In this document: positions 38,035-62,460 of the stretch, piece after piece
Numbering within the stretch: the stretch's first letter is position 1
Layout: each line of letters opens with the position of its first letter
Source: Haematococcus lacustris
Taxonomy: Eukaryota > Chlorophyta > Chlorophyceae > Chlamydomonadales > Haematococcaceae
Length of the DNA stretch: 64,000 nt
Assembly (NCBI GenBank): GCA_030144725.1
Contig: JASKMD010000021.1
Span: forward strand, 2,191,768-2,255,767
Direction of reading: 5' to 3'
Made by a program: the position numbers and the translations under genes
Notes under the pieces: model-generated
Told to the model about the DNA's origin: nothing
The model's database searches: none
Seen by the model: only the letters and a program-made list of their open reading frames with translations

Positions 38035-39199
38035 GATCATTGCCTTTAGTGTAACATTTGAGGCAGTCGCTTGTTTGTTGCTTGGTGAGGGTCAGTCGTT
38101 GTAATGCATTGCGATATGGATGAGATACAGGTGGCTTTCTTTGGAACGGAGGACTTGCACGGCGACAATGGCGGCGACAGCGGTGGCTCCGACCCTGACA
38201 TTGGTAAGTTCGACCCTCACTATTGCCGAGACGACCTGCCACGCACGGACTGCGGCTTCACAGAAATCACCAGCCCTTGATCCCTCGATTTGCTCGTAGG
38301 GACACCCGTAATCCTATCAGCGTTCTTGTGGATGTCACAGTGGCTATAGCCAGGTTTCTTGTTTCCTTAGCGGTTCTCGTCGCCGCCGCCGCCGCCGCCA
38401 CTTCAAATGCCCAGCTATCTTGCCTCAGACATTGTCATCATAACCTAATGCGGTAGGTGCTGCCCCGACCGTGCAGTCGCAGTGACTGATTTCTTGGTTG
38501 CTAGGGCAGCCATGCCATTGCTGCAGTTGCACAAGTGGTAGGGCTTGGGTTGCCTAGGTAGCAACATCAAGGGCACCATCATGTGCATGCGCAACTGTAT
38601 CCATACCATGCAGGTGCACTTGCAGTTGCTCCGTGTGCATTTGTATTTGTCACAACATGTTGTTTCGTCTCTTGCAGGGCTGCTTGGTTGTGGAGCTCCT
38701 TCTTAGCATGCTAGTGCTGTTGCTCACGGCTTGTTCATCAAGTAAAACCCAGCCTCAAAGCTCAATCAGGTGAGGGAGCAGATCCTGCAACATGAAGTCT
38801 AAACTTGTGCATGACGGCACCCATTACCCTCCTTGATGTCATTGTGCGCAGGAGTTGAGGTGAACACATGTCCGATGTTGCGGCAATGGTTGGTTGCTCC
38901 TAGCCTGCCCTTGGCCCCAGCTCAGGTCACATTGCCAGCTCCTCCACCACTTCTCAGACCTCTCTCTCTATATATCTCTACCAATCCATGACGAAACGGG
39001 CGCTATAGAGGCCGGCGCACATCACTCGGTTGGTGTTGTGCTTCTTGATGCTCTCAACCCACCCTCCACCCCAACTCAGGCTATCTCTCAGCTCAGGCTA
39101 GCTCCACCACCTCTCAGTCCTGCCATTCCCTATATACCTTGATAGCGTCGTTGTCCCTCATTATCACCAGCCTTTGGCATGCCACGCATAGTGGAGAAC

Positions 39200-39499
39200 T
39201 GTAAAGTGCGCACCTCTGGAAGAGATTGCCGCTTCGCGTCGTCTGGGCTGTCTCGTGAATGCGAGCCGTCGCGGGACGCGGGTTACACGTGTAGTGTGAG
39301 ATTTGGCAGGTTAAAGACTAGCGACATTGCGTTCGCAAGTACAACTGGTTCGATCCCAGGGAGCCCCGTTCTAAGCTCTAGCCATTCTCGCAACACACCG
39401 CTGTAACCCAACACCCTAGTCGGAAGTCACCGCCTCGACTGGACCGGCCTTCGAGCTTGTGTCAAAAGGTCATCTGACGTTGCGTCCCCGCACGTTACA
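39200..39499 (+). repeat. 5' LTR of the chromovirus
   Basis: This 300-bp LTR starts TGTAAAGTGCGCAC and ends CACGTTACA. It contains GGTTCGATCCC, which matches a pol III B-box; the relative at 58287-58539 keeps that motif. It is identical by eye to the 3' LTR. Confidence 0.95.
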
Positions 39500-39501
39500 G
39501 C

Positions 39502-39519
39502 TGGTTTCCGACCCCGAGC
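39502..39519 (+). other. Putative primer-binding site
   Basis: TGGTTTCCGACCCCGAGC starts two bases after the LTR, with TGG complementary to a tRNA CCA end. The matching tRNA was not identified. Confidence 0.65.
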
Positions 39520-40469
39520 ATTTAAGCTCGCGGTCCAGTCAACATGACTTCAACTACCCAAAATGTCGCTTCGGCGAATAAGACCAATGGCGCCTCTGGC
39601 GTCCTTCCTCCAGCTTCAGCTGTTACAGCTACAGCGGAGACGGGTCCTGCACTCGGTGCAGCACCGGAGCCGGGCGAGTTGCCCGCTTCACTTCCCGCAG
39701 GAGGCCAACAGTTGGCTGAAGAAGAGGAGCTTCTGGACGAGTTTGGCCTGGACCAATTCGACAGCACTGCGACTCCAGTCGACGAGCTCAACGCGCAAAT
39801 TGCCACCCTCCAGGCGCAACTGGTCGCAGCGCAGGCCAACAACCAGCAAGCTGGTTCGCTGGTGAGTCCTCTTGCTGCTAAGCGTGCTGCTAATGCGGCT
39901 TTGCTGTCAGCTAGCCCTAGTCCAGCTAAGAGGCCAGTCGAAGTAGCGTCGCAGCTAGTCAGGCCTTTGGCTGCTGCTCTGCGCGCACTCCAACACTTGA
40001 CTGCTGCAATGCACCAGCCTGTTGCGCAGAAAGATGTTGACTCGGGTTCACCCGGCACTTCGAACCCTCGCACACTTGCTGCTGTGCGGGACAAGTATGC
40101 TGGGGTTCGCCCCACTGCTGCGCCCCTGCCTGCCAATGCCACTGCTGTTGCTGGTCCTGATTCCAACTCACGTCGCGGGTTGCCCGTGACTGAGCGGTGG
40201 ACTGATGCCAGTTCGACCTCCGGTCGCCGTGCTCTGTCATTCCTGGAAGACCTTGAAGCACACTGTGTTGCACATGGCCTGGACCCTGCTCTTGCTCTGC
40301 CCTCTTTCCTGTCAGGAAAGGCTACACTCACGATAAACAAGGACCGGTCGCGATTGGGCCGACCATAGCTCATTGGAAAGAGGAGTAGAAGGCCGTTCGA
40401 ACGGTACAAGTCTTACGCTAATCCGCGTAGCCGTTGCGACGTAATTTGGCCGCGATTTTTATAACCAAG

Positions 40470-40850
40470 CAATCTGCACAGATGTCGTATGACCTTCATC
40501 TGCACAGCTGCAGAAAACCGACATCTGCACAGATGCAGTCATAATCGACATCTGTGCAGCTGCGGAAAGTCGACATCTGCACAGATGTCGTATACCGTGA
40601 CCAACATCTGTGCATCTGCTGACGACGACATCTGCACAGATGTCGACTATTACATTCAATGCTTGGCTGTGCAGATGTCGTGACCGACATCTGTGCAGCT
40701 GCTGACAACGACATCTGCACAGATGTCGACTATTACATTCGAGCCTTGGCTGTGCAGATGTTGTTTGTAGCATCTGCACAGATGTCGACTATTACATTCG
40801 CGGCTTGGCTGTGCAAATGTCGTGGCTTCATCTGCACAGATGTCGACTAT
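40470..40850. repeat. Left subterminal palindrome array
   Basis: About a dozen copies of CATCTGCACAGATG or its complement form CATCTGTGCAGATG, spaced 20-40 bp apart. In most, an 8-bp stem CGACATCT/AGATGTCG surrounds GCAC. Confidence 0.92.
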
Positions 40851-40885
40851 TTCATCGACTCTTACATCCGCAAAGCACATGCATT

Positions 40886-41165
40886 GACACCCAAACATCC
40901 CGCAACACCCCCGCAAAACACATGTATTGACCACCAAACACCCCGCAACACCTTGCTACACCCCCGCAAAACACATGTATTGACACCCAAACACCCCGCA
41001 ACACCTCGCTACACCCCCGCAAAACACATGTATTGACGACCCAACACCCCGCAACACCTCGCAACATCCCCGCAAAACACATGTATTGACGACCCAACAC
41101 CCCGCAACATCCCCGCAAAACACATGTGTGGACACCCAAACATCCCGCAACACCTCGCTACGGGA
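40886..41165. repeat. About 60-bp tandem repeat
   Basis: Units contain CCCCGCAAAACACATGTATT and CACCCCGCAACACCTCGC, with four to five copies of varying length. It adjoins the left subterminal array. Confidence 0.88.
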
Positions 41166-41324
41166 CTTGCAAGCACATGTCTCGATGCACCATCACTCCA
41201 CAACACCTCAATATGGCTATGCTAAGCACATGCATTGATGCACCCAATGATAATAACACCTCCCTACGATGTGACAAGGTAGCAACGACACAACACAACA
41301 AGAAGGTGACACCACACACCACCA

Positions 41325-41460
41325 CCACCATCACCATCACCATCACCATCACCATCACCATCACCATCACCATCACCATCACCATCACCATCACCATCAC
41401 CATCACTCAGGTTAAACATGCATCACCATCACCATCACCATCACCATCACCATCACCATC
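41325..41460. repeat. CATCAC hexamer array
   Basis: About 20 CATCAC hexamers in two blocks, broken at 41,409-41,421 by TCAGGTTAAACATG. Confidence 0.95.
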
Positions 41461-42496
41461 ACCACACATCACCACACATCACCACACATCACCACACATC
41501 ACCACACCTCACCACACCTCACCACACCTCACCACACCTCACCACACCTCACCACACCACACCACACCACACCACACCACACCACACCACACCACACCAC
41601 ACCACACCACACCACACCACACCACACCACACCACACCACACCACACCACACCACACCACACCACACCACACCACACCACACCACACCACACCACACCAC
41701 ACCACACCACACCACACCACACCACACCACACCACACCACACCACACCACACCACACCACACCACACCACACCACACCACACCACACCACACCACACCAC
41801 ACCACACCACACCACACCACACCACACCACACCACACCACACCACACCACACCACACCACACCACACCACACCACACCACACCACACCACACCACACCAC
41901 ACCACACCACACCACACCACACCACACCACACCACACCACACCACACCACACCACACCACACCACACCACACCACACCACACCACACCACACCACACCAC
42001 ACCACACCACACCACACCACACCACACCACACCACACCACACCACACCACACCACACCACACCACACCACACCACACCACACCACACCACACCACACCAC
42101 ACCACACCACACCACACCACACCACACCACACCACACCACACCACACCACACCACACCACACCACACCACACCACACCACACCACACCACACCACACCAC
42201 ACCACACCACACCACACCACACCACACCACACCACACCACACCACACCACACCACACCACACCACACCACACCACACCACACCACACCACACCACACCAC
42301 ACCACACCACACCACACCACACCACACCACACCACACCACACCACACCACACCACACCACACCACACCACACCACACCACACCACACCACACCACACCAC
42401 ACCACACCACACCACACCACACCACACCACACCACACCACACCACACCACACCACACCACACCACACCACACCACACCACACCACACCACACCACA
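41461..42496. repeat. ACCAC pentamer satellite, about 190 copies
   Basis: Four copies of ACCACACATC, then five of ACCACACCTC, then an uninterrupted ACCAC run from 41551 to 42496 (946 bp). Translation in any frame is open and meaningless (Thr-His-His-Thr-Pro or Val-Trp-Cys-Gly-Val). Confidence 0.98.
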
Positions 42497-42705
42497 ACCC
42501 AACAAGGTGACAACACAACAACATCGCAACAAGGCGGCAAGATGACGAGGACAACAAGCACGGGCTGACAACCACCCAAGCGCTCAACTATCCCTTTTGA
42601 GAGGGATGGGTAGGGTCATTGTGGTGTGTGGGCATGGCATGGCCAGGGTGGGCTGGGTGGGCTGCTACTCCAAGCTGCCCGCTCCAGGTTGCCCGCTCCA
42701 GGTTG

Positions 42706-42830
42706 CTACGCCAAGGGTAGGGTAGGGAGAGGGCTACTACGCCAAGGGTAGGGTAGGGAGAGGGCTGCTACGCCAAGGGTAGGGTAGGGAGAGGGCTGCT
42801 ACGCCAAGGGTAGGGTAGGGAGAGGGATGC
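42706..42830. repeat. About 32-bp minisatellite
   Basis: Four copies of GCTACGCCAAGGGTAGGGTA plus GGGAGAGGGCT, next to a piece of the module shared with the second CACTA-like element. Confidence 0.88.
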
Positions 42831-42950
42831 AGCGTGTGTCGTGGGGCGGGGGGTGGGAAAGGCGGGAGGTAGGTGGGGTGCCAGGCTTGGAGGTGGTGGG
42901 ACAGGGGAGGGGAGGGGGAAGGGGGAAGGAGGAAGGGGGGAAGAGGGAAG

Positions 42951-43048
42951 GGCTGACCGTGGGACCTGCAGTAAACAATGGGCATCTTTGCGGTTAGGCT
43001 GGGCATCCGACCACCCATATGCAAGGGCTGGCCACTCACTCTTTGCTA
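42951..43048 (+). repeat. Shared internal module, copy 1
   Basis: About 100 bp containing GACCTGCAGTAAACAATGGG, GGTTAGGCTGGGCATC and CAAGGGCTGGCCACTCACT. It is preceded by a GGGGA/GGAAG purine tract. Related copies lie at 53571, 54620 and 55313 in the second CACTA-like element. Confidence 0.85.
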
Positions 43049-43171
43049 GCGCCACTTTTATACCTACCTGGCAGCGCCTCCATGGCTGTAGCTCCTGGCT
43101 GCTCTTGCGCTCCATGCACCTGCTTCTTGTGGTAGGGTGATGAAGGAGGTGGTGGTGGGGGAGGGAGGGGA

Positions 43172-43238
43172 GGGCTGGGCTGGGCTGGGCTGGGCTGGGC
43201 TGGGCTGGGCTGGGCTGGGCTGGGCTGGGCTGGGCTGG
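43172..43238. repeat. GGGCT pentamer array
   Basis: Thirteen perfect pentamers, matching in unit and length the array in intron 8 of the 13-exon gene at 25166-25230. Confidence 0.95.
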
Positions 43239-43849
43239 GTGTAGGGAAGGGGAGGTTGGGACCATTGAACCTGCAACAATTCAGTGGTTGGCAAATAGTT
43301 TGGCAAGGTACTTGGAGCCACATGACTGCAAGATAAAATACTCACCATTCGCTAGGGTGGGGTTTGTGTGGGTGCACCCAACTTTTTTTCAAGTGCACCC
43401 AGCTTCGTCTCATGCATGGCTCCTGACCGCCTCCGGGCTCCTCCACTCCTCTTCCGCTCCGTCTCACAGGCTTCGGGCTACGTGTCCTAGTTGCACCTCA
43501 TGCATTTGCCGCATCTTTGCATCGCTGTGTCGCTGCATCGCTGCGCCTCCTTCCGTTTTCTGTCGCTATATCTTGATCCTATCGCTTAATCTGATGGCAT
43601 CTGGTCGCCTAAGCGGCTGGCTGGCTCGTAGCTAGCCTTTTGGCGACGATTTTTGTTGGCTGCTCCTGGCTGCTCATTGCTGCTATATGGGGCAATCTAG
43701 GCTCCTTCGCGGTTCCTTGGCTTCCTTCGCGCCACCTTTGCGAAAACTTCATGCAGATATCACACAGATTGTTAAATAATGGAAGAGTCTTGATTCCTTC
43801 GCGGTGACTTTGCTTCCTTCGCGGTGCCTTTGCGTAGCCTTCATGTGCA

Positions 43850-44635
43850 CATCTGCACTACTTGGCATCTGTGCAGATGTCGAGGTATTTATCTGTGCAG
43901 ATGTCGCCTTTATTAGCATCTGCACAGATGTCGTCCTTAAATTATAACCGGCATCTGCACAGATGTCGCCCTTTTGTGCATCTGCACAGATTTAATTACC
44001 GACATCTGCACAGATGTCGCCTTTATTAGCATCTGCACAGATTTAATAACCGGAATCTGCACAGATGTCGCCTTTATTAGCATCTGCACAGATGTCGTCC
44101 TTAAATGATAACCGGCATCTGCACAGATGTCGCCCTTTTGTGCATCTGCACAGATTTAGTTACCGACATCTGCACAGATGTTGCCTTTATTAGCATCTGC
44201 ACAGATTTAATAACCGGCATCTGCACAGATGTCGCCTTTATTAGCATCTGCACAGATGTCGTCCTTAAATTATAACCGGCATCTGCACAGATGTCGCCCT
44301 TTTGTGCATCTGCACAGATTTAATTACCGACTTCTGCACAGATGTCGCCTTTATTAGCATCTGCACAGATTTAATAACCGGCATCTGCACAGATGTCGCC
44401 TTTATTAGCATCTGCACAGATGTCGTCCTTAAATGATAACCGGCATCTGCACAGATGTCGCCCTTTTGTGCATCTGCACAGATTTAATTACCGACATCTG
44501 CACAGATGTCGCCTTTATTAGCATCTGCACAGATTTAATAACCGGCATCTGCACAGATGTCGCTTTTCCTAAAGGCATCGGCATGCATCTGCACAGATTC
44601 CGGGCTCATTTAACCAACATCTGTGCAGATTCCCA
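43850..44635. repeat. Right subterminal palindrome array with higher-order repeat
   Basis: About 35 copies of GCATCTGCACAGATGTCG or GCATCTGCACAGATTTAA. Spacers such as CTTTATTA and TCCTTAAATGATAACCG recur in a higher-order unit of about 180 bp. Confidence 0.93.
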
Positions 44636-45654
44636 AAAAGGGGGGGGTACCTCGCGCGCGGATCGATGTATCTTCGCAACCGCTGCGAGTTAGGACTTCA
44701 TTCAAGAGCGAGGTCCCCCTTAAACTCAACGCTCTATCGTTCTATCGGAGCAGAAAGTCCATCCGATGCAAAAAAGGCCCCCGCGTCGGCCTTATTTATC
44801 GTGAGTGTAGGGATGTGTGGTTCCAGTCTGTTAGGGACTCATATGCCCTGACCCACTCTGGCTACCCCACATGGCCCTACCTGTCACAGCAGTTCCTTGA
44901 GTTTGTAGGGGAGGACCTGACCACTGATGCTGATGCAGCACGTGCTAAGCTCCTTGACTCAACTCACCTGCGTATGACTAATGGTGTTGCCCTGTCAGCA
45001 TACATTACTGACTTCAGGAACACCCTCACCTTGGCTGGCAAGGACTGCATGACAGATTCCATGCTTGTGAATGTCTTCCAGCGTGGCCTGTCAGCAGATC
45101 TGCGTGGTCCTGTTGCCAAGGACCTGCGTGCCCTTGTGGCCCCCACTTTGGATGAAGCCATTAAGGCTGCCATCACCAACCACAAGGCCCTTGTGGCTGC
45201 TGCTGGCTCTGGTGTGCATCCTGCCTCAAGGCGCCCGGTTGCTGCTGTGCACCAGGTGGCCCAAGTGCAACGTGGGCTGCAGAACCTGGCCAGGTTCCCT
45301 GGTCCACCTCCTGGGCGTCCTGCTGCTCCCTCAGCTGACAGTGAGGGTCCCCCTCCTGCCAGTGGCTATTGCTACCACTGTGGACTGTCGTCCCACTGGA
45401 CCAAGCATTGCAAGAGGAAAGCCTCTGGCATGAGCAAGGAAGAGGCCATGAAGGATGCTGGTACCTGGGAGCTGATGCAAGACCTGAAGAAGGGTGGCTC
45501 TGCCCCCTGCAAGGCTGCAAAGCGTGACCGCAGCCCTGACCGTGGTGGTGACCATGCTGGTCCCTCCAGGCAGTACCAGGGTAGACGCCCTCAGACTGCC
45601 AGGATGGAGGCGAATGGCATGGTGAAGCACTTTCAGAAGTATCAGCGCAAATAG

Positions 45655-48600
45655 GAGTTTGCTCAGCCAGTAAACCAAAACTGTGCTGAGTACTCTGAGG
45701 CATGCATTGTGTGTGAACCTGCTCATGTGCTGACTGCTGCACATGCTGATGGGGAATCCCTGCACTTTGCCTTTGCTGGTCACCTGAATGAGCACCCTGT
45801 CCGTGTCCTGTGTGACACTGGTGCTACCCACAGCTTTGTCAGTGCATCATTTGTGGCTGCACATGCTGTACCTGTCCACATGTTGAAGCACATGCAAGAG
45901 TGGCATGCTGCTAACAACACTGTGCTGAGCTGTTCCCAGTTTGTCAAGGCTGATTTGAGTCTGCCAGGTGTTACTGTACCCTGCAAACTCAACGTTATGC
46001 CTTCTCTCCTGCCAGACTTTGATGTGCTGCTGGGGAATGACTGGTTGAATGAGCATGAGGCCGTGATGTCATACCAGGACAAGACTCTCAGCCTGGCATG
46101 TGACAAGGGTGAGCCTGTAGTGCTGCCATGCACCCCTGCTGATAAGTCTGAGTCAGGGCAGTCTGCTGTAAGCAACCCTGCTTCTTTCCTGGTCAATGCT
46201 CTACGTGCAAAACCCCCTCTGGCTTCTGCAAAAGTTGCTGCCAGGTGGTTACGAAAAGGAGGCACAGGTGTCCTGGCCCTGATCACTGTGGACAATTCAA
46301 GTACCCCTGATCCAGCTCCAGCTGAACCTGACCTACCTCCAGGTGTGTCCCAGGCACTCAATGCTTTGCTGGATGAGTATGCTGATGTGTTTGCACCCAT
46401 CACATCTCTGCCACCTGAGCGTCCTGTGGGCCACGCCATACCCCTTGTGCCTGATGCACGACCCTCTGTGGTACCTCAATACCGCATGAGTCAGGAAGAG
46501 CATGCTGAGCTGAAGAAGCAGGTGCAGGACCTACTTGCCAAGGGCATGATAGAACCAAGCTCCAGTCCTTTTGCTGCTCCTATCCTGTTTGTCAAGAAGA
46601 AGTCTGGTGAGTTACGCATGTGCCTTGATTACCGTCAGCTCAACAAGATCACCATCAGGGATCAGTATCCACTGCCCAGGATTGATGACTTGTTTGACAA
46701 GCTGTCAGGTTGCACTGTGTTTTCTTCCCTAGACCTTCAAGCAGGTTACAACCAGATCAGGATCACCCCTGAAGATGTGCCCAAAACGGCCTTCAGGACC
46801 CCTGACGGCCACTACCAGTTCAAGGTACTGTCATTTGGGCTCTGCAATGCACCTGCTACATTCCAGCGTGTCATGAATGATGCATTTGCCCCAGTCCTGA
46901 ACCAGTGTGCCCTGGTGTACCTGGATGACATCTTGGTCATGTCCAAATCTGTGGACGAGCATTTGAAGCATCTCAGAAAGGTCTTTGACCTCCTGAGGCT
47001 CAACAAGCTCTTTGCCAAGCAGTCCAAATGTGAATTCATGCGTACCACGCTGAAATTCACTCCTACAAATTAGTCCCTGCGTTTTTCCCTGCGTTTTAGG
47101 CCAACCTTGTCCGATTGGACTGAAATTTTGATAGATGGTGTTTTGCAGAAAATAAAACATATTGTTTTTTGAGAAAAGTTTTCAAAAAACAATATGTTTT
47201 AATTTCTGCAAAACACCATCTATCAAATTTTCAGTCCAATCGGACAAGGTTGGCCTAAAACGCAGGGAAAAACGCAGGGACTAATTTGTAGGAGTGTTCC
47301 TTGGCCATGTCATCTTTGCTGGTGCTATTGCTGTGGACCCTGAGAAAATCAAGAGCATTTCTTCATGGCCTGTGCCTCAATCCCTGCAACAGCTCCAGTC
47401 ATTCCTAGGTGCTGCTAATTTTGTGCGCAAATTTGTGCATAATTTCAGTGTCCTAGCTGCACCTCTCACAGATCTGTGTGGCAAAGCTGGTGACTCATTT
47501 CTGTGGCACAATTGGCCTGCTGATGAGCTGAAAGCCTTTGCTTCCCTCAAAGCTGCTGTTGCCCAGGTCCCCATGCTACGTCTACCTGATCACACCCAGC
47601 CCTTCCAGGTCTACTGTGATGCCTCACTCCAAGGAGTAGGAGCAGTCCTGATGCAAGATGGCTACCCCCTTGCATACCTCAGCAAGAAGCTGTCTTCTGC
47701 TGAGCGTAACTACACCACTGGTGAGCAAGAGCTTCTTGCCCTCATCACTGCATGCAAGGAGTGGAGGTGTTACCTCGAGGGTGTACCATTCACACTCTTC
47801 ACCGATCATAAGCCTTTGACTGCTCTGCCCACCCAGAAGGTGCTGTCTAGACGTCAGGCTAGGTGGATGGAGTTTCTGTCACGGTTTACATTTGACCTGC
47901 AGTACCTGCCAGGTGATGCTAATCCTGCTGACCCACTGTCCCGGATACCTGCTGGACCCCAGGACTGTGCCATGGTGTGTGTTGTTACCACCCGGCGGCA
48001 AGCTAAACAGTCTTTGGAGAGGGGGGAAGTGCGTGTGGCGCAGGCTCTGCCCCAGGTTCCACCTGTGGGTACTCCCTCAAATGCCCCCACTGCCGTTGAT
48101 GCTTTGGCCCCCCGGCCCACAGTGTCTGATAACCCTGTTGCTGCTCACCATAGTAGGCTCCCTGAGCTTGAGGCCCCATCTGCTGCTGACACCTCAGTGC
48201 ACTATCCTGCAGCTCCTGCCCACCCATTGGAACTGGCTGATCACCTGGTCCATGGTTACCGGCTTGACCCTGCGTTTACTGCTGAAGCTGATCTGTCTGG
48301 CATGTACATGGACGACCATGGCCTGTGGCGGCGCACTGGCAAGGGCACAGTGATGGTTCCCAATGACCCTGAACTGCGTGAGTACATTCTGCATGAAATG
48401 CATGATGCTGCCTATGCTGGTCATGTGGGTATAACCAAAACCCTTGAGAGGCTGTCACGAGTGTTCTACTGGGACACCATGCGTGCTGATGTCAGGCACT
48501 ATGTCACTACCTGTGATGCCTGCCAGCGTGACAAGTCCTCCACACTGAAGCCTGGTGGCTTACTCAACCCACTGTCCATTCCAGATTACCGTTGGGAGTC

Positions 48601-49657
48601 AGTGTCAATGGACCTGATCACCAAGCTGCCATCTGCTTCACATGGGTTTGATACCATCTGTGTCTTTGTTGACAGGCTCAGTAAAATGGTGCACTTTGTG
48701 CCCTGCAAGGAGAGCATGAATGCCAAGGGCTTTGCCCGTCTGTTTGTTGACAATGTCTTCAAACTGCATGGCCTGCCAAAAGACATGGTCTCTGACCGAG
48801 GGCCCCATTTCCACAACACTTTCTGGCACCATGTGCAGAAGTTGCTGGGCATGAGGGGATCCTTGTCTTCCTCCTATCACCCTCAGTCTGATGGCCAGAC
48901 TGAGAGGTACAACCGTGTGTTGGAAGAGATGCTACGCCATTACATCTCTCCCACCCAAGCTGATTGGCCTGACTATCTGTCACTTGCTGAGTTTGCTGTG
49001 AACAACTCATGGCAAGAGTCCATCAAGTCTACACCGTTCCTGGTTAATACCGGACAGTCCCCCATTACCCCTATGCTCCACTCTCTACCTGACAAGGGGC
49101 GGTGCCCTGAAGGCCTGTCCTATGCTACTTGGTGGCAAGAGGCTGTGGCTAAGGCCAAGCTATGCATGCAGGCTGTTCAGCAACGTCAAGTTGCCTATGC
49201 CAACCAGGACCGTCGAGATGTGCATTACAAGGTGGGTCAAATGGTCCTGCTCAGCACTAAGAACATGAGGTTGAAGCCAGGCAAAGCACGTAAGCTGCTG
49301 CCACGTTTTGTGGGCCCCTTCAAGGTGCTTGACTTGGTTGGCCAGGTTGCAGTGAACCTGCAGCTGCCTGCCTCCATGTCACGACTTCACCCTGTGTTCC
49401 ATGTGTCACTCATCAAACCCTACACTGGCACTGATGTGGGCTTCATGCCTCCGCCTGTTGAGTGGCTTGATGAGGAGCCTGTGTACTATGTTGAGCGTCT
49501 GTTGGACCACAGACATGTGCATGCAGGGAAGGCCAAGGAGTACCTGGTGCAGTGGGAAGGCTATGATGCCGACCACAACACCTGGGAGCCACGTTCCAAC
49601 TTGGTTGGCTGTGACAAGATCCTGGCTGAGTACAATGCAGCTCACAACCTGAAGTAA
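45655..49657 (+). pseudogene. pol: pol of the chromovirus, RT split by a MITE
   Basis: Open in the gag frame directly after the UAG at 45652. Without the 239-bp MITE and one TT the frame reads CEFMRTTLKFLGHV without a break, 1253 residues. Protease is VLCDTGATHSF. Reverse transcriptase has LDYRQLNKITIRDQYPLPRI and the active site YLDD (46918-46929). RNase H has VYCDASLQGVGAVLMQDG. Integrase has the HHCC finger (HVGITKTLERL, CDACQRD) and a DDE core (SMDLITKL, VSDRGPHF, SDGQTERYN). The C-terminus is a chromodomain (YLVQWEGYDADHNTWEP), which in this clade directs integration to heterochromatin. Only the MITE breaks this copy. Confidence 0.94.
47058..47296. mobile_element. Palindromic MITE copy 1, inside RT, 2-bp TT duplication
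   Basis: 239 bp, almost wholly self-complementary. Ends are CACTCCTACAAATTAGTCCC and its inverse, flanked by TT (47056-47057, 47297-47298). Removing it with one TT restores the RT frame. Sequence is AT-rich, with CATATTG/CAATATG arms meeting at the centre, and it codes for nothing. Confidence 0.92.
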
Positions 49658-49719
49658 GTCCTAGGCCATGCATGCTGGTATGCTGCTGGACTATGGCATT
49701 CTCAGCATGCTTGTGCCTC

Positions 49720-49957
49720 CACTCCTACAAATTAGTCCCTGCATTCTTCCCTGCACTTTTGGCCAACCTTGTCCGATCGGGCTGAAATTTTGATAGATGG
49801 TGTTTTGCAGAAAATAAAACATATTGTTTTTGAGAAATATTTTCAAAAAACGATATGTTTTATTTTCTGCAAAACACCATCTATCAAAATTGCAGCCCGA
49901 TCGGACAAGGTTGGCCAAAGGTGCAGGGAAGAATGCAGGGACTAATTTGTAGGAGTG
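49720..49957. mobile_element. Palindromic MITE copy 2, in the 3' UTR of the chromovirus, 2-bp TC duplication
   Basis: 238 bp with the same ends CACTCCTACAAATTAGTCCC and same internal arms as copy 1, diverged by scattered substitutions. Several differences are matched on both arms (for example GATTGGACTG in copy 1 against GATCGGGCTG in copy 2, with the opposite arm changed to match). Flanked by TC (49718-49719, 49958-49959). It lies between the pol stop and the polypurine tract. Confidence 0.92.
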
Positions 49958-50134
49958 TCTGGTCAGCTGCTACCTGTGTGGTTATGGTTTCCCTGTGTCT
50001 AGTCGGCACGATGGTCTTTGACCGCTCCCTAAGCTATGACCTGGTGCGCCCTTTGGGTTGCCCAGTAGCTAAATCAGCATGCTGTAGGCAATGCGAGTCA
50101 CGTGGTTTTACCCGTGGCGGAACGGAAGCCCCTT

Positions 50135-50148
50135 TGGAGGGGGAGGAA
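50135..50148 (+). other. Polypurine tract
   Basis: GGAGGGGGAGGAA directly precedes the 3' LTR TGTAAAG; it is the expected plus-strand primer. The related element has GGGGGGAGGAA at the same place on the minus strand. Confidence 0.85.
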
Positions 50149-50448
50149 TGTAAAGTGCGCACCTCTGGAAGAGATTGCCGCTTCGCGTCGTCTGGGCTGT
50201 CTCGTGAATGCGAGCCGTCGCGGGACGCGGGTTACACGTGTAGTGTGAGATTTGGCAGGTTAAAGACTAGCGACATTGCGTTCGCAAGTACAACTGGTTC
50301 GATCCCAGGGAGCCCCGTTCTAAGCTCTAGCCATTCTCGCAACACACCGCTGTAACCCAACACCCTAGTCGGAAGTCACCGCCTCGACTGGACCGGCCTT
50401 CGAGCTTGTGTCAAAAGGTCATCTGACGTTGCGTCCCCGCACGTTACA
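50149..50448 (+). repeat. 3' LTR of the chromovirus
   Basis: 300 bp, identical by eye to the 5' LTR at 39200-39499, followed by the duplication AGAAC. Confidence 0.95.
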
Positions 50449-51324: not shown

Positions 51325-51994
51325 CTACGTAAAACTTCTTCCTATGGTCTTCCACGGTTCTTAGTGAATTCGGGCGTTGTTGCTTCCAAACAATAGTAAG
51401 TCAGCCTTAGCGGTCCTTAGCTCCAGCGTCGAGCTGAGACCTAGCCGTAGTTGACACTACGAGACTCCTAAAAGCCGACCTTAGGCTGAAAGAAGTCCTT
51501 AGAGCCATTAACGCTTGCATTTACGGTTTTTCGGGCCCACGCATTACCACTCATGCATTTGGTTTCCCCTTTCAAGTTCATCGCAGTGACGTTAACGTTC
51601 GACGAGGCGCTCGACGTGGACCTCCCGTCCGGGGCTAACACCCCGCGGAATTCCGTCTCATCATGTAGCCCGCCCAGCCTAGAACTCAGCCCTTCGCCAA
51701 GTGGCGAAAATCAGCCCATCATCTCGGACACACTTCCAAGCGCGCACCCAGTAGCCTACTGCTAAGCCTAGCCCGCACAACCGGAGCAGCCTCACCTGCT
51801 TCTCAGCTCAGCTTTTCCTTTAGTTTCCACGGGTAACCGTCACTCGCGCCGATTAAGGCCGGAAGTCGCCTACGTCATTTCTTCCCGGGAGGCGTACTGC
51901 AGATAGCCCCAGGAAAGGCCGACTCATCGCCGTTGTAATCGTTGAAAAACTCAAAGTTGCTGCGATGTTATAACTATTTGAAAAGTTACCTAAC

Positions 51995-52870
51995 CCTGTA
52001 CCGGGTCCTACCGACCCGTGTACAGGGTCCTAGGCCACAGGGTTCTGCCGCACGGCTACAGGGTCCTGCGACACATTCTCACAGGGTTCTGCCGCACGGC
52101 TACAGGGTTTTGCGACACGTTCTCACAGGGTTTTGCCGCACGGCTACAGGGTTTTGCGACACGTTCTCACAGGGTCCTGCCGCACGGCTACAGGGTTTTG
52201 CGACACGTTCTCACAGGGTTTTGCCGCACGGCTACAGGGTCCTGCGACACTTCTCACAGGGTTCTGCCGCACGGCTACAGGGTTTTGCGACACGTTCTCA
52301 CAGGGTTTTGCCGCACGGCTACAGGGTTTTGCGACACGTTCTCACAGGGTCCTGCCGCACGGCTACAGGGTTTTGCGACACGTTCTCACAGGGTTTTGCC
52401 GCACGGCTACAGGGTCCTGCGACACTTTCTCACAGGGTTCTGCCGCACGGCTACAGGGTTTTGCGACACTTTCTCACAGGGTTTTGCCGCACGGCTACAG
52501 GGTCCTGCGACACTTTCTCACAGGGTTCTGCCGCACGGCTACAGGGTTTTGCGACACGTTCTCACAGGGTTTGCCGCACGGCTACAGGGTCCTGCGACAC
52601 TTCTCACAGGGTTTGCCGCACGGCTACAGGGTTTTGCGACACGTTCTCACAGGGTTGTGCCGCACGGCTACAGGGTCCTGCGACACTTTCTCACAGGGTC
52701 CTGCCGCACGGCTACAGGGTTCTGCGACACATTCTCACAGGGTTCTGCCGCACGGCTACAGGGTCCTACGACACATTCTCACAGGGTCATGCCGCACGGC
52801 TACAGGTTCCTACGACACACGTTCACAGGGTCCTGCCACACGCCTACAGGGTCCTGCCACAACGTATGCA
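51995..52870. repeat. 42-44 bp minisatellite with ACAGGGTCCTG core
   Basis: About 20 units, each with ACAGGGTTCTGCCGCACGGC followed by TACAGGGTTTTGCGACACGTTCTC or close variants. Two alternating ACAGGGT half-units per copy give a dimeric structure. Confidence 0.95.
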
Positions 52871-53133
52871 ACGACGCCCGAACACCTTGCAACACCACAA
52901 CAAACGGCATGTATTGCTGGTGCTAAGCACATGCATTGATGGAAGGTGACAACACCACACAACAACACCACACAACATCACTACAACAACAACACAACGA
53001 CTCATGCATTGCTCACCACCTATGCCATGTGTACAACCACAAGGACTGGCTGCACCTCATTGCTATGGGCTAACACCTCATCACGGGACTGCTAAGCACT
53101 TTGCCTTGCTGTCTATGCCCCATGGCACCAAAT

Positions 53134-53265
53134 CAGGCTGGGCTAGGCTAGGCTGGGCTAGCCTGGGGTAGGCTAGGCTAGGGTAGGCTAGGGTAGGCTA
53201 GCCTAGGCAAGGCTAGCCTGGGGTAGGCTAGGCTAGGCTAGGCTGGCGTAGGCTGGGTTAGGCTT
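53134..53265. repeat. GGCTA/GGCTG pentamer-like tract
   Basis: Degenerate GGCTAGGCTA and GGGTAGGCTA words, related to the GGGCT arrays. Confidence 0.8.
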
Positions 53266-53267
53266 GG

Positions 53268-53412
53268 CTCCAGGTTGCCCACTCCTGGTTGCCCGCTCCA
53301 GGCTGCCCGCTTCAGGCTGCCCGCTCTAGGCTGCCCGCTCCAGGCTGCCCGCTCCATGCTGCCCGCTCCATGCTGCCCACTCCGGGCTGCCCGCTCCAGG
53401 CTGCCCGCTCCA
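53268..53412. repeat. 15-bp minisatellite
   Basis: About nine copies of GGCTGCCCGCTCCAG and variants. The same unit starts the shared block in the first CACTA-like element at 42,672. Confidence 0.88.
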
Positions 53413-53570
53413 TGCTGCTACGCCAAGGGCTGCTGGGTGCCATTGGGTGGGGGAGAGGAGAGAAGAGGGGAGGAGGGGAGGAGGGGAGGAGGGTAGGTAG
53501 GTGGCAGACTCGGAAGTGGTGGTGGTGGGCTTGGGCAGGGAAGGGGGAAGGGGGAAGGGGGCAAGGGGCA

Positions 53571-53680
53571 GCAGTGTGACCATCAGACCTGCGGCAGCAA
53601 GAGGCATCCTTGCATTTAGGCTTGGCATTGGGGACCACTCATGTGCAGGGACTGGCCACTTACAGTTATGCTCCATGTCA
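53571..53680 (+). repeat. Shared internal module, copy 2
   Basis: Contains TGTGACCATCAGACCTGCGG, GGGGACCACTCATGTGCAGG and GACTGGCCACTTACAGTTAT, preceded by a purine-rich tract. Confidence 0.82.
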
Positions 53681-53983
53681 CGACGCCGGGGGAGGGTACG
53701 GGGTACGAGGAGGGTACGGTCCTTGCTGGCTCCTTGTTGGTTGCTGCTCTACCGCCATGCTTGCAATCAACCCGGCCATGCTTCACCTGCCATGCTCCAG
53801 CTGTCGACAACTGCAATCAAACATCAGCCAGCAAGCAGATGGATTAGGACATGCATGACCAGAACCGGGCAGGCTAGGCTGACACCTCCCAAGCATGTGC
53901 ACTCACCGGAAGTCCTGGCTGCCGCTCCAAGCGCCTCCTACCTGCTGCTCTTGGCTGCTACTCTTGCTTTCTGCTCATGGCTG

Positions 53984-54608
53984 CAGGGGAGGGGAGGGGA
54001 GGGGAGGGGAGGGGAGGGGAGGGGAGGGGAGGGGAGGGGAGGGGAGGGGAGGGGAGGGGAGGGGAGGGGAGGGGAGGGGAGGGGAGGGGAGGGGAGGGGA
54101 GGGGAGGGGAGGGGAGGGGAGGGGAGGGGAGGGGAGGGGAGGGGAGGGGAGGGGAGGGGAGGGGAGGGGAGGGGAGGGGAGGGGAGGGGAGGGGAGGGGA
54201 GGGGAGGGGAGGGGAGGGGAGGGGAGGGGAGGGGAGGGGAGGGGAGGGGAGGGGAGGGGAGGGGAGGGGAGGGGAGGGGAGGGGAGGGGAGGGGAGGGGA
54301 GGGGAGGGGAGGGGAGGGGAGGGGAGGGGAGGGGAGGGGAGGGGAGGGGAGGGGAGGGGAGGGGAGGGGAGGGGAGGGGAGGGGAGGGGAGGGGAGGGGA
54401 GGGGAGGGGAGGGGAGGGGAGGGGAGGGGAGGGGAGGGGAGGGGAGGGGAGGGGAGGGGAGGGGAGGGGAGGGGAGGGGAGGGGAGGGGAGGGGAGGGGA
54501 GGGGAGGGGAGGGGAGGGGAGGGGAGGGGAGGGGAGGGGAGGGGAGGGGAGGGGAGGGGAGGGGAGGGGAGGGGAGGGGTGGGGAGGGGAGGGGAGGGGT
54601 GGGGTGGG
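53984..54608. repeat. GGGGA pentamer satellite, about 120 copies
   Basis: An uninterrupted GGGGA run of about 610 bp, with GGGGT variants only in the last 40 bp. All frames are open on both strands; none is a gene. Confidence 0.98.
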
Positions 54609-54619
54609 CAAGGGGTGGG

Positions 54620-54725
54620 CGTGTGACCGTCACACCTGCAAGCAACAAGGGGCGTGCTCACGGTAAGGCTGGGCAATGGGGGCCACTGATGTGCAAGGGG
54701 CTGGCCACTCACTGTTATCTCCATG
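54620..54725 (+). repeat. Shared internal module, copy 3
   Basis: Contains GTGACCGTCACACCTGCAAG, AACAAGGGGCGTGCTC and GGGGCTGGCCACTCACTGTT. Confidence 0.85.
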
Positions 54726-55312
54726 TGCCATTGCTGAATCCTTGCTGCCTCCTTGTTGGCTGCTGCTCCTCCCTCCTGGCTGTGCCTCCTGGCTGTGGGG
54801 GGCATGGGCCTCTTGGCCTTGGCCAACCACTTGCCTTGCCCATGCCTCCTGGCTGCCACTCCTGGCTGCCGCTCCTAGCTGCTGCTCCTGGCTGCCGCTC
54901 CTGGCTGCTCCTCTTGGCTGCTCCTCTTGGTTGCGCCTCCTGGGGAGTGGTGGGTCTGGCAGGTGGTGCCACCAAGGGTGAGGGTGAGGGTGAGGATGAC
55001 AGTCACCAAGGGTGAGGGTGAGGGTGAGGATGAGGAGGAGGTGAGGAGGGGGTGGAGCGATGGTCGCACGATGAGCGCACAAGGGGGAGCCAAGGGGTTC
55101 AGCATGGCAGTTACACAGTCCTTACCTCCATGTTCCTCCTGGCCTGGGTAAGGGTGAGGGAGAGGAGGAGGAGGGGGGTGTGAGGGAAGGAGGTGAGGGG
55201 GAGGAGGTGAGGGGGAGGAGGGAGAAGAGGCATGGGAAAGAAGAGTGGAGTGGAGGGGAGGGGAGAGGGAGGGGAGGGGGCCTGTTGCTCCTTGCTGCCG
55301 CTCTGGCTGCTG

Positions 55313-55461
55313 AGCTGACCATCACACCTGCAGCAAACAAGGGGCGTGCTAGGATGAGGAGGAGGCCACTGATGAGGAGGAGGCCACTGATGGGGAGGGT
55401 TAGGCTGGGCACAAGGGGTCACTTATGTGCGTGGGGCTAGCCACTCACTGCTTGCTCCATG
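55313..55461 (+). repeat. Shared internal module, copy 4
   Basis: Contains TGACCATCACACCTGCAGCA, AACAAGGGGCGTGCTA and GGGGCTAGCCACTCACTG, with a 40-bp internal insertion of GATGAGGAGGAGGCCACT duplicated. Confidence 0.83.
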
Positions 55462-56338
55462 CGGTCCCTTGATCATTCCTTAGGGGGAGGGAGAGGGGGA
55501 GTGGGGGATCTGGCAGGTGGTGGTGGGCAGTGTGGTAGGGAGGAGGGAGGAGGGAAGAGGGAGGAGGGAAGAGCGAGGAGGGAGGAGGGTACGCTTTTGC
55601 TCTTGTCCGCCGCCCTGGCTGCCGCTACTTGTTGCCGTTGTGGTTGCTGCTTCTGGCTGATGGAAGGTGCCACTGCGCCTTGGCACCGAACCTGCTCAAG
55701 CAACACATGGCACATGACACATGCCACGCTCCAACCTCGCGGTCGCACCTCAGAATCGCATCTATGCATCGCACCTTTGCAAGCTACCTTTGTGCCGTTC
55801 GCCCTCAACTCTGTGCTTGATCACAAATACCCTATTCCTTTCGCTGATCGCTAATGGCTGCGAAACCGAGCTGCATGCTGGCCTCTTGGCTGATGACTGA
55901 TGGCTGCGAAGGCTAGCTGGCCCGCATTTCATGGCCGGCTGTGAGGCTGCGCATTTGGGCGCTGTTGATGTCGCTGCTGCTGAGTTTGGGATGGATGTGT
56001 CGCGTGTTGCGTGTTGCTGCATTACTGCGGGCTTTGCGAGGTCGACATGGTTTCCTCTCATGGCGCCTCGCGACCTCATGGCACACCAACGGCATGCTTG
56101 GTGGCAGCTAGCGCAGATCCCAATACCAAGCCCGTCAGTTTTCGCGCTCTTGCATGCAAAACACATGCAGAAAGCGGGGTTGGCGAAACCCTGCACAGCG
56201 TCTTTGAATCACTTAGGAGAAATCAACACAAGGAACGAAACCCTGCACAAGGTCGGCGAAACCCTGCACGAGGTCAGGGTTGACTTAGAAAAAGTCCATG
56301 CTTTGATCGAAACCCTGCACTAGGTTAGCAACTTGACT

Positions 56339-56600
56339 TTGCACATGCTACCTACTAGGTTGTGCTTCTATTCTGATGCCTGACAACTCCTCATACTCAG
56401 AAATTTTAAAAAGTCACTTCAGTCAGTAAGCACCATCTCCCTTAGCCAAATTCGGGGTGAGGGCCAGGCTGATGGTCCAGCAGCTCCGCAATGACCAAGA
56501 ATTTCACTTTGGCCCAAGAGAGTCTTCTCCTCCACTAGGTCACAGCAGCCTACATGCCAAGTCTCAGACCTCAACTCGCAAGTTTGCCGAGCCAGCCAGC
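56339..56600. repeat. Direct repeat of about 260 bp, copy 1
   Basis: Shares ACCTACTAGGTTG, CTCATACTCA, AAAAGTCACTT, CTCCCTTAGCC, TTTCACTTTGGCCCAAGAGA and CAGACCTCAACTC in order with 57908-58170. The CAGGACCCTGT array lies between the two copies. Confidence 0.88.
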
Positions 56601-57690
56601 CCCTGTGGGCCAGGACCCTGTGGTGAGGTGCCAGAACCCTGTGGTGTGGTGCCAGGACCCTGTGGTGTGGTGCCAGGACCCTGTGGTGTGGTGCCAGGAC
56701 CCTGTGATGTGGTGCCAGGACCCTGTGGGAGTGGTGCCAGGACCCTGTGAGTGTCCAGGACCCTGTGGGTGTGCGGCAGAACCCTGTAGCCAAACGTCGC
56801 AGGACCCTGTAGGCGTGCGGCAGAACCCTGTAGCCAAACGTCGCAGGACCCTGTAGGCGTGCGGCAGGACCCTGTAGCCAATCGTCGCAGGACCCTGTAG
56901 GCGTGCGGCAGGACCCTGTAGACTAACGTCGCAGGACCCTGTGTGCCAGAACCCTGTGGGTGTGCAGCAGGACACAGTAGGCCAGGACCCTGTGGTGCCA
57001 GGACCCTTGTGATGTGGTGCCCGGACCCTGTGGTGTGGTGCCAGGACCCTGTGGTGTCTGGACCCTGTGGTGTGGTGCTAGGACCCTGTAGGCCAGGACC
57101 CTGTGGTGTGGTGCCAGAACCCTGTAGGCCAAGACCTGGTGGTATGGTGCCAGGACCCTGTGGTGTGGTGCCAGAACCCTGTAGGCCAGGACCCTGTGGT
57201 GAGGTGCCAGGACCCTGTGGTGTGGTGCCAGGACCCTGTGGTGTGGTGCCAGGACCCTGTGGGCCAGGACCCTGTGGTGTGGTGCCAGGACCCTGTGGTA
57301 CCAGGACCCTGTGGTGAGGTGCCAGGACCCTGTGGGCCAGGACCCTGTGGTGAGGTGCCAGGACCCTGTGGTGAGGTGCCAGGACCCTGTGGTGCCAGGA
57401 CCCTGTGGTGTGGTGCCAGGACCCTGTGGGCCAGGACCCTGTGGTGAGGTGCCAGGACCCTGTGGTGCCAGGACCCTGTGGTGAGGTGCCAGGACCCTGT
57501 GGGCCAGAACCCTGTGGTGAGGTGCCAGGACCCTGTGGTGTGGTGCCAGGACCCTGTGGTGTGGTACCAGGACCCTGTGGGCCAGGACCCTGTGGTGTGG
57601 TGCCAGGACCCTGTGAGCCAGAACCCTGTGGTGTGGTACCAGGACCCTGTGTAGAAAGACACTCATCGTAGGACCCTGTACAGGGTCCTG
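56601..57690. repeat. CCAGGACCCTGTGGTG array
   Basis: About 50 units of roughly 13-25 bp built on CAGGACCCTGT, such as GCCAGGACCCTGTGGTGTGG. The core is the reverse complement of the ACAGGGTCCTG core at the other end of the element. Confidence 0.95.
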
Positions 57691-57907
57691 GCACACATGG
57701 TCAAAAGCATCCAAACGGGGTCAACATGACCAACAACCGGGTATGTAGGAATCCTAACAGGGTTCTATCACATAGGGATGCAAAGAATGATTATAATATC
57801 AACACTCATAGGGTACACAGGACCCTGTACAGGGTCCTACGACCATGATGACGCTAGGAACCTGTACAGGGTCCTAGGACACGGGCCATAGCTCATTCCT
57901 TGTTGGG

Positions 57908-58170
57908 ACTTTTTGCATGCCACCTACTAGGTTGGGCAGCTGTAACCACCCTTTACAACCTCTCATACTCACATTTCATGAAAAGTCACTTTGGTCACAC
58001 GGTGCCAACTCCCTTAGCCAAAATCAGGGTCTCAGCCCCACACCTGGCCCAACAACTCGACACCGAGTGAGAATTACACTTTGGCCCAAGAGAGTCTTGT
58101 CATCCCCTAGGTCACAGCAGCCCACATACCAAGTTTCAGACCTCAACTCTCAGGTTTTTCAAGCCAGCCA
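57908..58170. repeat. Direct repeat of about 260 bp, copy 2
   Basis: Second copy of the repeat at 56339-56600, diverged by substitutions and small gaps. It ends 20 bp from the right terminus of the CACTA-like element. Confidence 0.88.
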
Positions 58171-58286
58171 GGCCTTAATTTGCACGAGTGGTGAGGCGCA
58201 CCAGGCGCTGCCCGGGTGTCAGCGGTGCCAGTCTTTCAATGTAACGTGCAGCCTCATAAAGGCGACGTTGGACCGTTTGAACCATA

Positions 58287-62431: not shown

Positions 62432-62460
62432 AGTCGGTGCCGATCAATGAGTGTGTGGGG

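What the first reader, a model, noticed from the sequence alone, without database searches (positions are those of the whole stretch)
40325..44807. Satellite-filled CACTA-like transposon whose removal with one TA restores gag exactly
The 18-bp inverted termini (CACTCACGATAAA...), TA on both sides, and exact restoration of the gag frame (SGKA joined to RDVWFQ) fix the insertion to the base. The 4.5 kb between the ends codes for nothing. It is a set of tandem arrays: a palindromic 20-mer at both ends, then 60-bp, CATCAC, ACCAC, 32-bp and GGGCT repeats. An insertion made mostly of satellites suggests a transposon that acts as a carrier, or nursery, for satellite DNA.
Basis: partly seen in the sequence, partly recalled or inferred. 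Interest (0 to 1): 0.88.

Follow-up and report, generated by a model that had tools for sequence, protein, structure and literature searches.

The report
Algal jumping gene packed with satellites
A recent insertion in a retrotransposon of the green alga Haematococcus is one copy of an abundant mobile element that seems to carry no genes of its own and consists mostly of an ordered set of repeat arrays whose lengths differ from copy to copy, so the transposon carries satellite DNA around the genome, although the one satellite tested was not seen to spread without it.

Summary
Window 40325-44807 is a 4,483-bp insertion with CACTCACGATAAA termini, flanked by TA, in the gag of a young Ty3 element (LTRs 99.35% identical). 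All 11 sister Ty3 loci read have the empty site with one TA and an open gag frame across it. The terminus occurs 1,256 times (18-mer, up to 2 mismatches; reversed control 3). Of 29 end-paired copies with readable flanks, 28 have equal dinucleotides of varied sequence at both sides, none equal trinucleotides. Long copies share an array order, with losses in some: palindromes, 53-bp, CACCAT/CACCA, 31-bp, GGGCT, palindromes. Array lengths vary widely, also in one pair 99.9% identical in unique DNA. The palindromes look like protein-binding sites. Best reading: a non-autonomous CACTA-like (CMCT-type) element, mobilised in trans, with hypervariable satellite cargo. 'Carrier' is supported; 'nursery' is not shown: 27 of 30 listed clusters of the 31-mer lie near a terminus or in element DNA, 3 were not read. 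No matching transposase was found. A second such family (TIR CACTCG...) lies at 51841-58190.

The parts
40325..44807 (+). Whole element 1 (4,483 bp), non-autonomous CACTA-like transposon, GC-type palindrome subfamily
   Evidence: Ends, TSD and empty sites:
40323..40324 (.). Target-site duplication TA (left copy)
44808..44809 (.). Target-site duplication TA (right copy)
40325..40470 (+). Left end: TIR CACTCACGATAAACAAGGACC plus about 125 bp of conserved subterminal sequence
   Evidence: alignment of 28 copies
40472..40855 (+). Left subterminal array of the palindromic motif ATCTGCACAGAT (often within CGACATCTGCACAGATGTCG), putative protein-binding sites
40868..41247 (+). 53-bp minisatellite array (CCGCAAAACACATGTATTGAC...)
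41309..42496 (+). CATCAC / CACCA microsatellite arrays
42668..42830 (+). 14-bp and 31-bp (TGCTACGCCAAGGGTAGGGTAGGGAGAGGGC) arrays
43172..43239 (+). (GGGCT)n array, 13 units here, up to 254 uninterrupted in the 23 copies compared
43868..44630 (+). Right subterminal palindrome array, about 28 motifs, 164-bp higher-order repeat (outer limits read by eye; TRF 43891-44567)
44648..44807 (+). Right end: 160-bp conserved end with TIR (read inward CACTCACGATAAATAAGGCC)
39193..50448 (+). Host Ty3/gypsy element with LTRs 39193-39499 and 50142-50448 (99.35% identical over 307 bp)
51841..58190 (+). Element 2: related family, TIR CACTCGCGCCGATTAAGGCC / CACTCGTGCAAATTAAGGCC, TSD GT/GT, subterminal motif ACAGGGTCCT in opposite orientation at the two ends, interior (AGGGG)n and other arrays

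Best explanation
Element 1 is a recent insertion of a high-copy, apparently gene-free cut-and-paste DNA transposon of the CACTA/CMCT type in Haematococcus pluvialis. Shown: defined inverted ends, a 2-bp target duplication, empty sister sites, many paired copies, a shared order of arrays, and array-length differences between near-identical siblings (one pair). Inferred: a transposase encoded elsewhere recognises the TIR and the roughly 150-bp ends, which are shared by two subfamilies whose interiors have diverged; a second DNA-binding protein occupies the conserved palindromes at both ends, as TNPA does in En/Spm; the interior satellites are passive cargo that expands and contracts by slippage, unequal exchange or template switching during replication or gap repair, and each transposition seeds the current arrays at a new site.
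For: Terminus counts 443+437 against 3+0 for the reversed control, and 634+622 against 2+1 with 2 mismatches. 28 of 29 copies with equal 2-bp flanks, 0 of 29 with 3 bp, shifted control 2 of 29. 11 of 11 sister Ty3 sites read are empty. A 110-bp copy (L011) holds only the two ends and still has a 2-bp TSD, which suggests that the ends are enough to be mobilised. Same palindrome type at both ends in 29 of 29 long copies. Motif identity between adjacent units 0.97-0.98 (0.83 in left GC-type arrays) against spacer 0.21-0.50, in 22 of the 29 long copies. Ends are hardly differentiated between subfamilies (right end 0.962 between, 0.963 within GC type), while the interior is (0.757 against about 0.95 in the most divergent segment aligned in both). 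L028 and L029: unique DNA 99.86% identical, 100-bp flanks unrelated, yet 31-mer 7 vs 3, GGGCT 25 vs 43, palindromes 30 vs 18.
Against: No CMCT transposase was found between these ends: of 110 frames of 100 aa or more, the only transposase-like matches are hAT-type (PF05699 in 1 frame, PF04937 in 1 frame), a class that makes 8-bp TSDs (recalled) and is probably a nested remnant; repeat-rich frames and most LINE frames of L037/L038 were not scanned, and introns could hide a gene. PF02992 gave no match in the genome, but its controls did not ring either. Six Plavaka-like loci exist, but the one whose surroundings were read has none of these termini within its 6 kb. 42 of the 100 termini listed do not belong to the pairs fetched. 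The matching palindrome type at both ends is confounded, because each subfamily inherits its interior with both arrays. Units were picked by at most 3 mismatches to the motif, which favours motif identity. Binding by a protein is inferred from conservation only, and L011 has no palindromes. That array lengths change because of transposition is not shown. L019 lacks equal flanks and appears composite (two right-type ends).
Confidence: 0.85

Rival explanations
1. Satellite nursery: the transposon is a place where new satellites are born and from which they are released as free-standing arrays.
For: Arrays reach 281 units of GGGCT in L010 and 644 of GGGGC in L020. A 2,054-bp tandem array with 8 unit starts on C1 carries 132 bp of the transposon's right end in each unit, 99.4-99.8% identical to the reference unit, showing that a piece of the transposon can enter a new tandem array.
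Against: 31-mer clusters in the capped list (C1 and C2 only): 25 of 30 lie within about 5 kb of an exact terminus, 2 more lie in element DNA when read, and 3 were not read. The 2,054-bp array is mostly other DNA. The other interior satellites were not tested.
Confidence: 0.12
2. Classical CACTA (En/Spm) element with the usual 3-bp TSD, containing a captured satellite.
For: CACT termini, subterminal direct and inverted motif arrays, gene-free derivatives; satellite arrays inside CACTA elements are described in Chenopodium (PMC8978399, passages and section 10).
Against: TSD is 2 bp: 28 of 29 with 2, 0 of 29 with 3. The arrays are not a recent capture: the order is shared by copies of both subfamilies in the part that was shown, and part of the interior is recognisable in element 2, whose ends differ (about 71% over 205 bp and 90% over 51 bp of G-rich DNA). 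No Transposase_21 found (controls silent).
Confidence: 0.25
3. The palindrome arrays are ordinary satellites amplified by unequal exchange, without function.
For: The right arrays show higher-order repeats of about 164 bp, 97% identical in the window copy, so amplification does occur. The 110-bp copy L011 has no palindromes and yet has a TSD.
Against: Conservation stops at the 12-bp motif: the two bases on either side of the 8-bp seed carry 1.3-2.0 bits, spacer positions mostly below 1 bit. In TA-type right arrays 201 hits are exact and 24 have 1-3 mismatches, against 3 hits in shuffled sequence. Adjacent units share 0.97-0.98 of motif and 0.21-0.50 of spacer (0.83 and 0.32 in left GC-type arrays). 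Element 2 has a different motif, in opposite orientation at its two ends.
Confidence: 0.15
4. Not a transposon but a segmental duplication or assembly artefact.
For: Repeat-rich DNA in a Hi-C assembly; L036 contains 5,000 N and L031 has N in its flank.
Against: Empty sister sites and 2-bp duplications at 28 sites with different flanks; the paper describes HiFi reads of 16.6 kb mean length (PMC10400597, section 5), longer than a typical copy.
Confidence: 0.02

Closest known systems
En/Spm-CACTA elements, e.g. soybean Tgmt* and Tgm1 (PMC2613891, passages read)
   Same: CACTA termini with 13-bp TIRs; asymmetric subterminal arrays of a stem-loop motif (4 left, 24 right in Tgmt*; 12 and 28 in the window copy); two families within one species that differ in the subterminal motif; motif thought to bind a TNPA-like protein
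   Different: 2-bp instead of 3-bp TSD; no CMCT transposase recognised in the copies read; interior made of satellites
CACTA-like Jozin of Chenopodium with satellite arrays (PMC8978399, passages and section 10; PMC9659126, passages)
   Same: A CACTA element containing a satellite array; transposon-linked satellite origin
   Different: One 171-bp array in a coding element there; here several different arrays in a shared order in a family of hundreds of termini without recognised genes
[quoted passage not shown] PMC12730594, passages)
   Same: CA..TG ends and TSDs of 2-5 bp; Plavaka makes 2-bp (type A) or 2- or 3-bp (type B) TSDs; Plavaka-type genes exist in this genome
   Different: Plavaka termini are described as TGT..ACA or CATCA..TGATG; no link between those genes and these ends
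Jordan of Volvox carteri (original paper recalled, not read; called En/Spm- and CACTA-like in PMC5093975, passages)
   Same: Abundant CACTA-like DNA transposon of another volvocine green alga
   Different: Recalled as about 1.6 kb, without ORF, with 3-bp TSD; no ordered satellites known to me
DINE/Helitron central tandem repeats and Tetris foldback element of Drosophila (PMC9659126, passages)
   Same: Transposons carrying tandem repeats that relate to satellite DNA
   Different: Other transposition mechanisms and structures

Membership tests
CACTA/EnSpm sensu stricto | Termini 5'-CACT..AGTG-3' in inverted repeat | tested here: met
   CACTCACGATAAA at both ends
CACTA/EnSpm sensu stricto | 3-bp target-site duplication (as stated in PMC8978399 and PMC2613891) | tested here: not met
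   0 of 29 copies have equal trinucleotides, 28 of 29 equal dinucleotides
CACTA/EnSpm sensu stricto | Subterminal arrays of a short direct/inverted motif | tested here: met
   29 of 29 long copies of family 1; the 110-bp copy L011 has none
CACTA/EnSpm sensu stricto | Transposase_21 (TNP2) gene in an autonomous partner | tested here: inconclusive
   PF02992 search of the genome: no match, control genomes also silent; none among 110 frames
CMCT clade in the wide sense | CA..TG ends and a 2-5 bp TSD | tested here: met
   criterion from PMC12730594
CMCT clade in the wide sense | DDE transposase with C(2)C and H(3-4)H motifs acting on these ends | tested here: inconclusive
   Plavaka-type genes at 6 loci; none linked to these ends, only one locus read
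Plavaka | Termini TGT..ACA or CATCA..TGATG | tested here: not met
   criterion from PMC12730594
Satellite nursery | Same satellites as free arrays outside the transposon | tested here: inconclusive
   31-mer only: 27 of 30 listed clusters near a terminus or in element DNA, 3 not read; other satellites not tested
Tc1/mariner | TSD always TA | tested here: not met
   TA in 6 of 28 duplications, 13 other dinucleotides in the rest

The most novel reading that the evidence does not exclude
A clade of CACTA-like transposons without genes of their own works as a genome-wide distributor of satellite DNA. An ordered cassette of several satellites is copied to hundreds of sites, and its arrays change in length within very short times. 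The mobilisation module, the roughly 150-bp ends, stays common property, exchanged between subfamilies whose cassettes have diverged, in places beyond recognition. At times parts of the element are swept into new macrosatellites, such as the 2,054-bp array on C1.
Probability: 0.35. Interest if true: 0.75.

Novelty: new variant of a known kind. Interest (0 to 1): 0.58.

Why it matters
How transposons and satellite DNA feed each other is an old question, usually argued from single cases. Here one genome offers many base-exact copies of the same ordered satellite set, with empty sites, a near-identical sibling pair and two subfamilies sharing ends. That makes rates of array growth and loss per transposition measurable. 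It also gives a clean test of whether subterminal palindromes are binding sites that co-evolve with a transposon protein.

Tried and rejected
Rejected: Tc1/mariner (TSD is TA in only 6 of 28). A conserved 108-aa frame as a gene. The 19.4-kb pair L037/L038 as an autonomous copy: its 2,216-aa frame gives RVT_1, RNase_H and Exo_endo_phos, so it holds a nested LINE. The 9.7-11.3 kb pairs L018, L019, L026/L043 and L033/L034 as autonomous copies: they contain additional nested arrays or elements, and among 110 frames from the copies only hAT-type matches were transposase-like; the tool did not name the members, by my reading they are in L033. Matching palindrome type at both ends as proof of function: withdrawn as independent evidence because the interior is inherited as a block, although 39 of 46 end sites conflict with it. 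TIRs around the Plavaka-like gene in L064: none convincing.

Nothing is claimed about absence from print.
Full report
Source. The window is G000:C100:2191768-2255767 in a 308-Mb, 597-contig genome. Lengths of C1, C2, C11 and C22 (4,970,000; 8,246,294; 7,935,624; 12,546,000) equal Chr1, Chr10, Chr11 and Chr12 of the Haematococcus pluvialis SAG 192.80 assembly (PMC10400597, section 5 read).

Observation. The insertion runs from 40325 to 44807 with TA on both sides. The host is a Ty3 element with LTRs at 39193-39499 and 50142-50448 that are 99.35% identical over 307 bp, so the host is young and the insertion younger. A search with the left gag flank gave 40 scored matches of 211 candidates, 99-100% identical. 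Twelve loci were cut out; one is the window itself. In the other 11 of 11 the left and right flanks are contiguous, sharing just the TA (in L055 only the first 85 bp of the right flank align). The gag frame is open through the junction in all 11 (stop to stop 547 aa in six, 548 in two, 532, 455 and 308 in the rest).

A family. The 13-bp terminus occurs 443+437 times, reversed control 3+0; as an 18-mer with up to two mismatches 634+622, control 2+1. That suggests about 600 copies, or roughly 2.8 Mb at 4.4 kb each (inference; not all termini need be paired). One search lists the first 100 places only (C1, C2, C11, part of C22). In that list, by my reading, 58 places form 29 inward-facing pairs 110 bp to 19.4 kb long, all of which I fetched as 32 regions; one further inward-facing pair within 20 kb (C1:4653013-4664790, two right-type ends) was not fetched, and the other 40 places stand alone, in clusters, or face a partner too far away. 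Eight more regions with single ends or gaps were also fetched. Adding the window copy gives 30 pairs, one of which (L031) has N in its left flank. Of the remaining 29, 28 have equal dinucleotides, 0 equal trinucleotides, shifted control 2. The exception, L019, has two right-type ends and is probably composite. The dinucleotide varies (14 kinds, TA in 6 of 28).

Anatomy. Long copies have a left end of about 130 bp, a palindrome array, a 53-bp array, CACCAT/CACCA-type repeats, 14- and 31-bp arrays, GGGCT repeats, unique DNA, a second palindrome array and a right end of about 150 bp. Part of the output was cut, and some copies lack a block (in one search the 31-mer count and the GGGCT run are 0 at the minimum). 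L011 is 110 bp and has only the ends, yet has a 2-bp TSD. Tandem repeats cover 0.66 of the window copy and 0.54 of element 2, against 0.11 elsewhere in the window; 80 overlapping control windows reach 0.33 at most. No random genome sample could be fetched.

Coding. Frames of 100 aa or more with under 35% tandem repeat number 149, in 27 of the elements examined, window copy, element 2 and the LINE-bearing copy included. I scanned 110 of the 149, all except those of L037/L038: Lamprin (5 frames) and Agouti (4) are composition-driven by my reading; PF05699 hAT (1 frame, E 3.3e-6), PF04937 DUF659 (1 frame, 0.0024) and PF12607 (1 frame, 0.0093) remain. A hAT makes 8-bp TSDs (recalled), so I take it as a nested remnant. 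Of L037/L038 two frames were scanned: one is a LINE, one gave nothing. The 108-aa frame found in many copies varies evenly over codon positions (40/47/48 in 26 copies) and is broken in others, so it is not coding.

Arrays change fast. Over 23 copies (nested, composite and N-bearing ones left out) the 31-mer count runs 0-18, uninterrupted GGGCT 0-254, palindromes 12-48. L028 and L029, 14 kb apart, with unrelated 100-bp flanks, are 99.86% identical in unique DNA but differ in 31-mer (7, 3), GGGCT (25, 43) and palindromes (30, 18); the next closest pair is 98.6% identical. This fits a short-distance hop followed or accompanied by array change; which of the two is not shown.

Palindromes as binding sites. 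In 29 of 29 long copies of family 1 both ends carry the same palindrome type: 19 ATCTGCACAGAT, 10 ATCTGTACAGAT. In 22 of these copies (8 TA type, 14 GC type), neighbouring units share 0.97-0.98 of the 12-bp motif and 0.33-0.50 (TA type) or 0.21 (GC type, right) of the spacer; left GC-type arrays give 0.83 against 0.32. Units were picked by at most 3 mismatches to the motif, which favours motif identity; the fairer figure is that TA-type right arrays hold 201 exact hits and 24 with 1-3 mismatches, against 3 in shuffled sequence, whereas GC-type arrays hold more inexact hits, many of them the reverse form of the motif, which differs at two positions. Element 2 uses another motif, ACAGGGTCCT, with 38 near-matches in the left array against 0 of the opposite orientation, and in the right array 56 against 5 the other way. 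This resembles the subterminal arrays of CACTA elements: soybean Tgmt* has 4 and 24 repeats left and right, and two soybean families differ in the motif (PMC2613891, passages). Against over-reading: the interior is inherited with the palindrome type, so concordance of the two ends is partly descent.

Interiors differ, ends are shared. Before the CACCAT block the types are 0.757 identical, against 0.956 and 0.940 within; in two middle segments the difference is smaller (0.921 and 0.912 between, 0.923-0.980 within); in two segments after GGGCT none of the 10 TA-type copies matched the window copy over 60% of its length, while all 17 GC-type copies did. At the ends the types are hardly separated: right end 0.962 between, 0.963 and 0.960 within; left 0.902 between, 0.919 and 0.898 within. 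Some association remains: the nearest neighbour has the same type in 20 of 27 copies at the left end and 18 of 27 at the right. 39 of 46 variable end sites show all four combinations with type, and 252 of 360 left-right site pairs do so with each other, in 28 copies. Exchange of ends between subfamilies, by gene conversion or template switching, is the simplest reading (inference).

Carrier or nursery. The 31-mer has 1,383 exact copies (675+708), control 0; only the first 100 places, on C1 and C2, are listed. By my reading they form 17 clusters on C1 and 13 on C2. Of these 30, 25 (14 and 11) lie within about 5 kb of an exact terminus. Two more (L062, L063) were read and contain element DNA, 93-98% identical over the longer pieces, one piece 88%. 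Three (C1 near 902038, C2 near 1185805 and 3988747) were not read. Thus the 31-mer travels in the transposon and was not seen free. The one sign of release is a 2,054-bp tandem array on C1 (8 unit starts at 4213508-4227886; 99.4-99.8% identical to the reference unit), each unit beginning with 132 bp of the right end at about 95% identity.

Transposase. PF02992 found nothing, but its control genomes were silent. PF18759 (Plavaka, a CMCT lineage) has seven matches at six loci; five of the loci are 35-41% identical to the sixth, at C166. The C166 locus is a gene in several frames, probably exons, with none of these termini in 6 kb. The CMCT clade is described as having CA..TG ends in most cases and 2-5 bp TSDs, and Plavaka 2- or 3-bp TSDs (PMC12730594, passages). 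I therefore file the family as CACTA-like within CMCT by structure, not as a proven CACTA member.

Novelty. Satellites within CACTA elements (PMC8978399, section 10) and transposon-derived satellites in general (PMC9659126, passages) are known, as is the CACTA-like Jordan of Volvox (PMC5093975, passages). Unusual here are an ordered multi-satellite interior kept through two subfamilies and, by weak similarity, in part in a second family with other ends, the 2-bp TSD, and shared ends over diverged interiors. The two H. pluvialis genome papers were seen only in passages and one section; the passages seen speak of repeats in general terms.

Holding the draft against the calls changed these points: the 31-mer count now includes C2; the array identity is 99.4-99.8%; the Pfam scan was extended to 110 frames and showed hAT-type matches; bias and partial coverage are stated.

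Noticed in passing
window 51841-58190: Second satellite-filled CACTA-like element of another family, TSD GT/GT; its TIR 20-mer occurs 456+463 times in the genome, control 0. A relative is nested in L026/L043.
   Followed up: partly
G000:C1:4213508-4227886 and beyond (L047 from 409, L041 from 124): Tandem array with 2,054-bp unit, 8 unit starts, each starting with 132 bp of the transposon's right end; frames resemble parts of a dienelactone hydrolase by my own reading (not tested)..
   Followed up: partly
L033/L034, element coordinates 589-5136: Nested element with perfect 18-bp TIR CACTGTTACAATCTGCGC and AT on both sides, a possible third family.
   Followed up: no
probably L033 (my reading; the tool names no member): hAT-type transposase remnant: PF05699 in one frame and PF04937 in one frame of 110 scanned.
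   Followed up: no
L018 (817-5670) and L019 (5095-5547), element coordinates: Further palindrome or motif arrays (CTACAGTACTGTAG; ACAGAGCAGTATC) inside larger copies, hinting at more such families.
   Followed up: no
L064 (G000:C166:7833500-7839500): Plavaka-like transposase gene in several frames; six loci with such matches in the genome.
   Followed up: partly
L037/L038 (G000:C22:94732-114125): 19.4-kb copy with a nested LINE (endonuclease, reverse transcriptase, RNase H) and a CA/CA TSD.
   Followed up: partly
window 58872-63926, minus strand: Second Ty3 element, its coding region split over several open frames.
   Followed up: no
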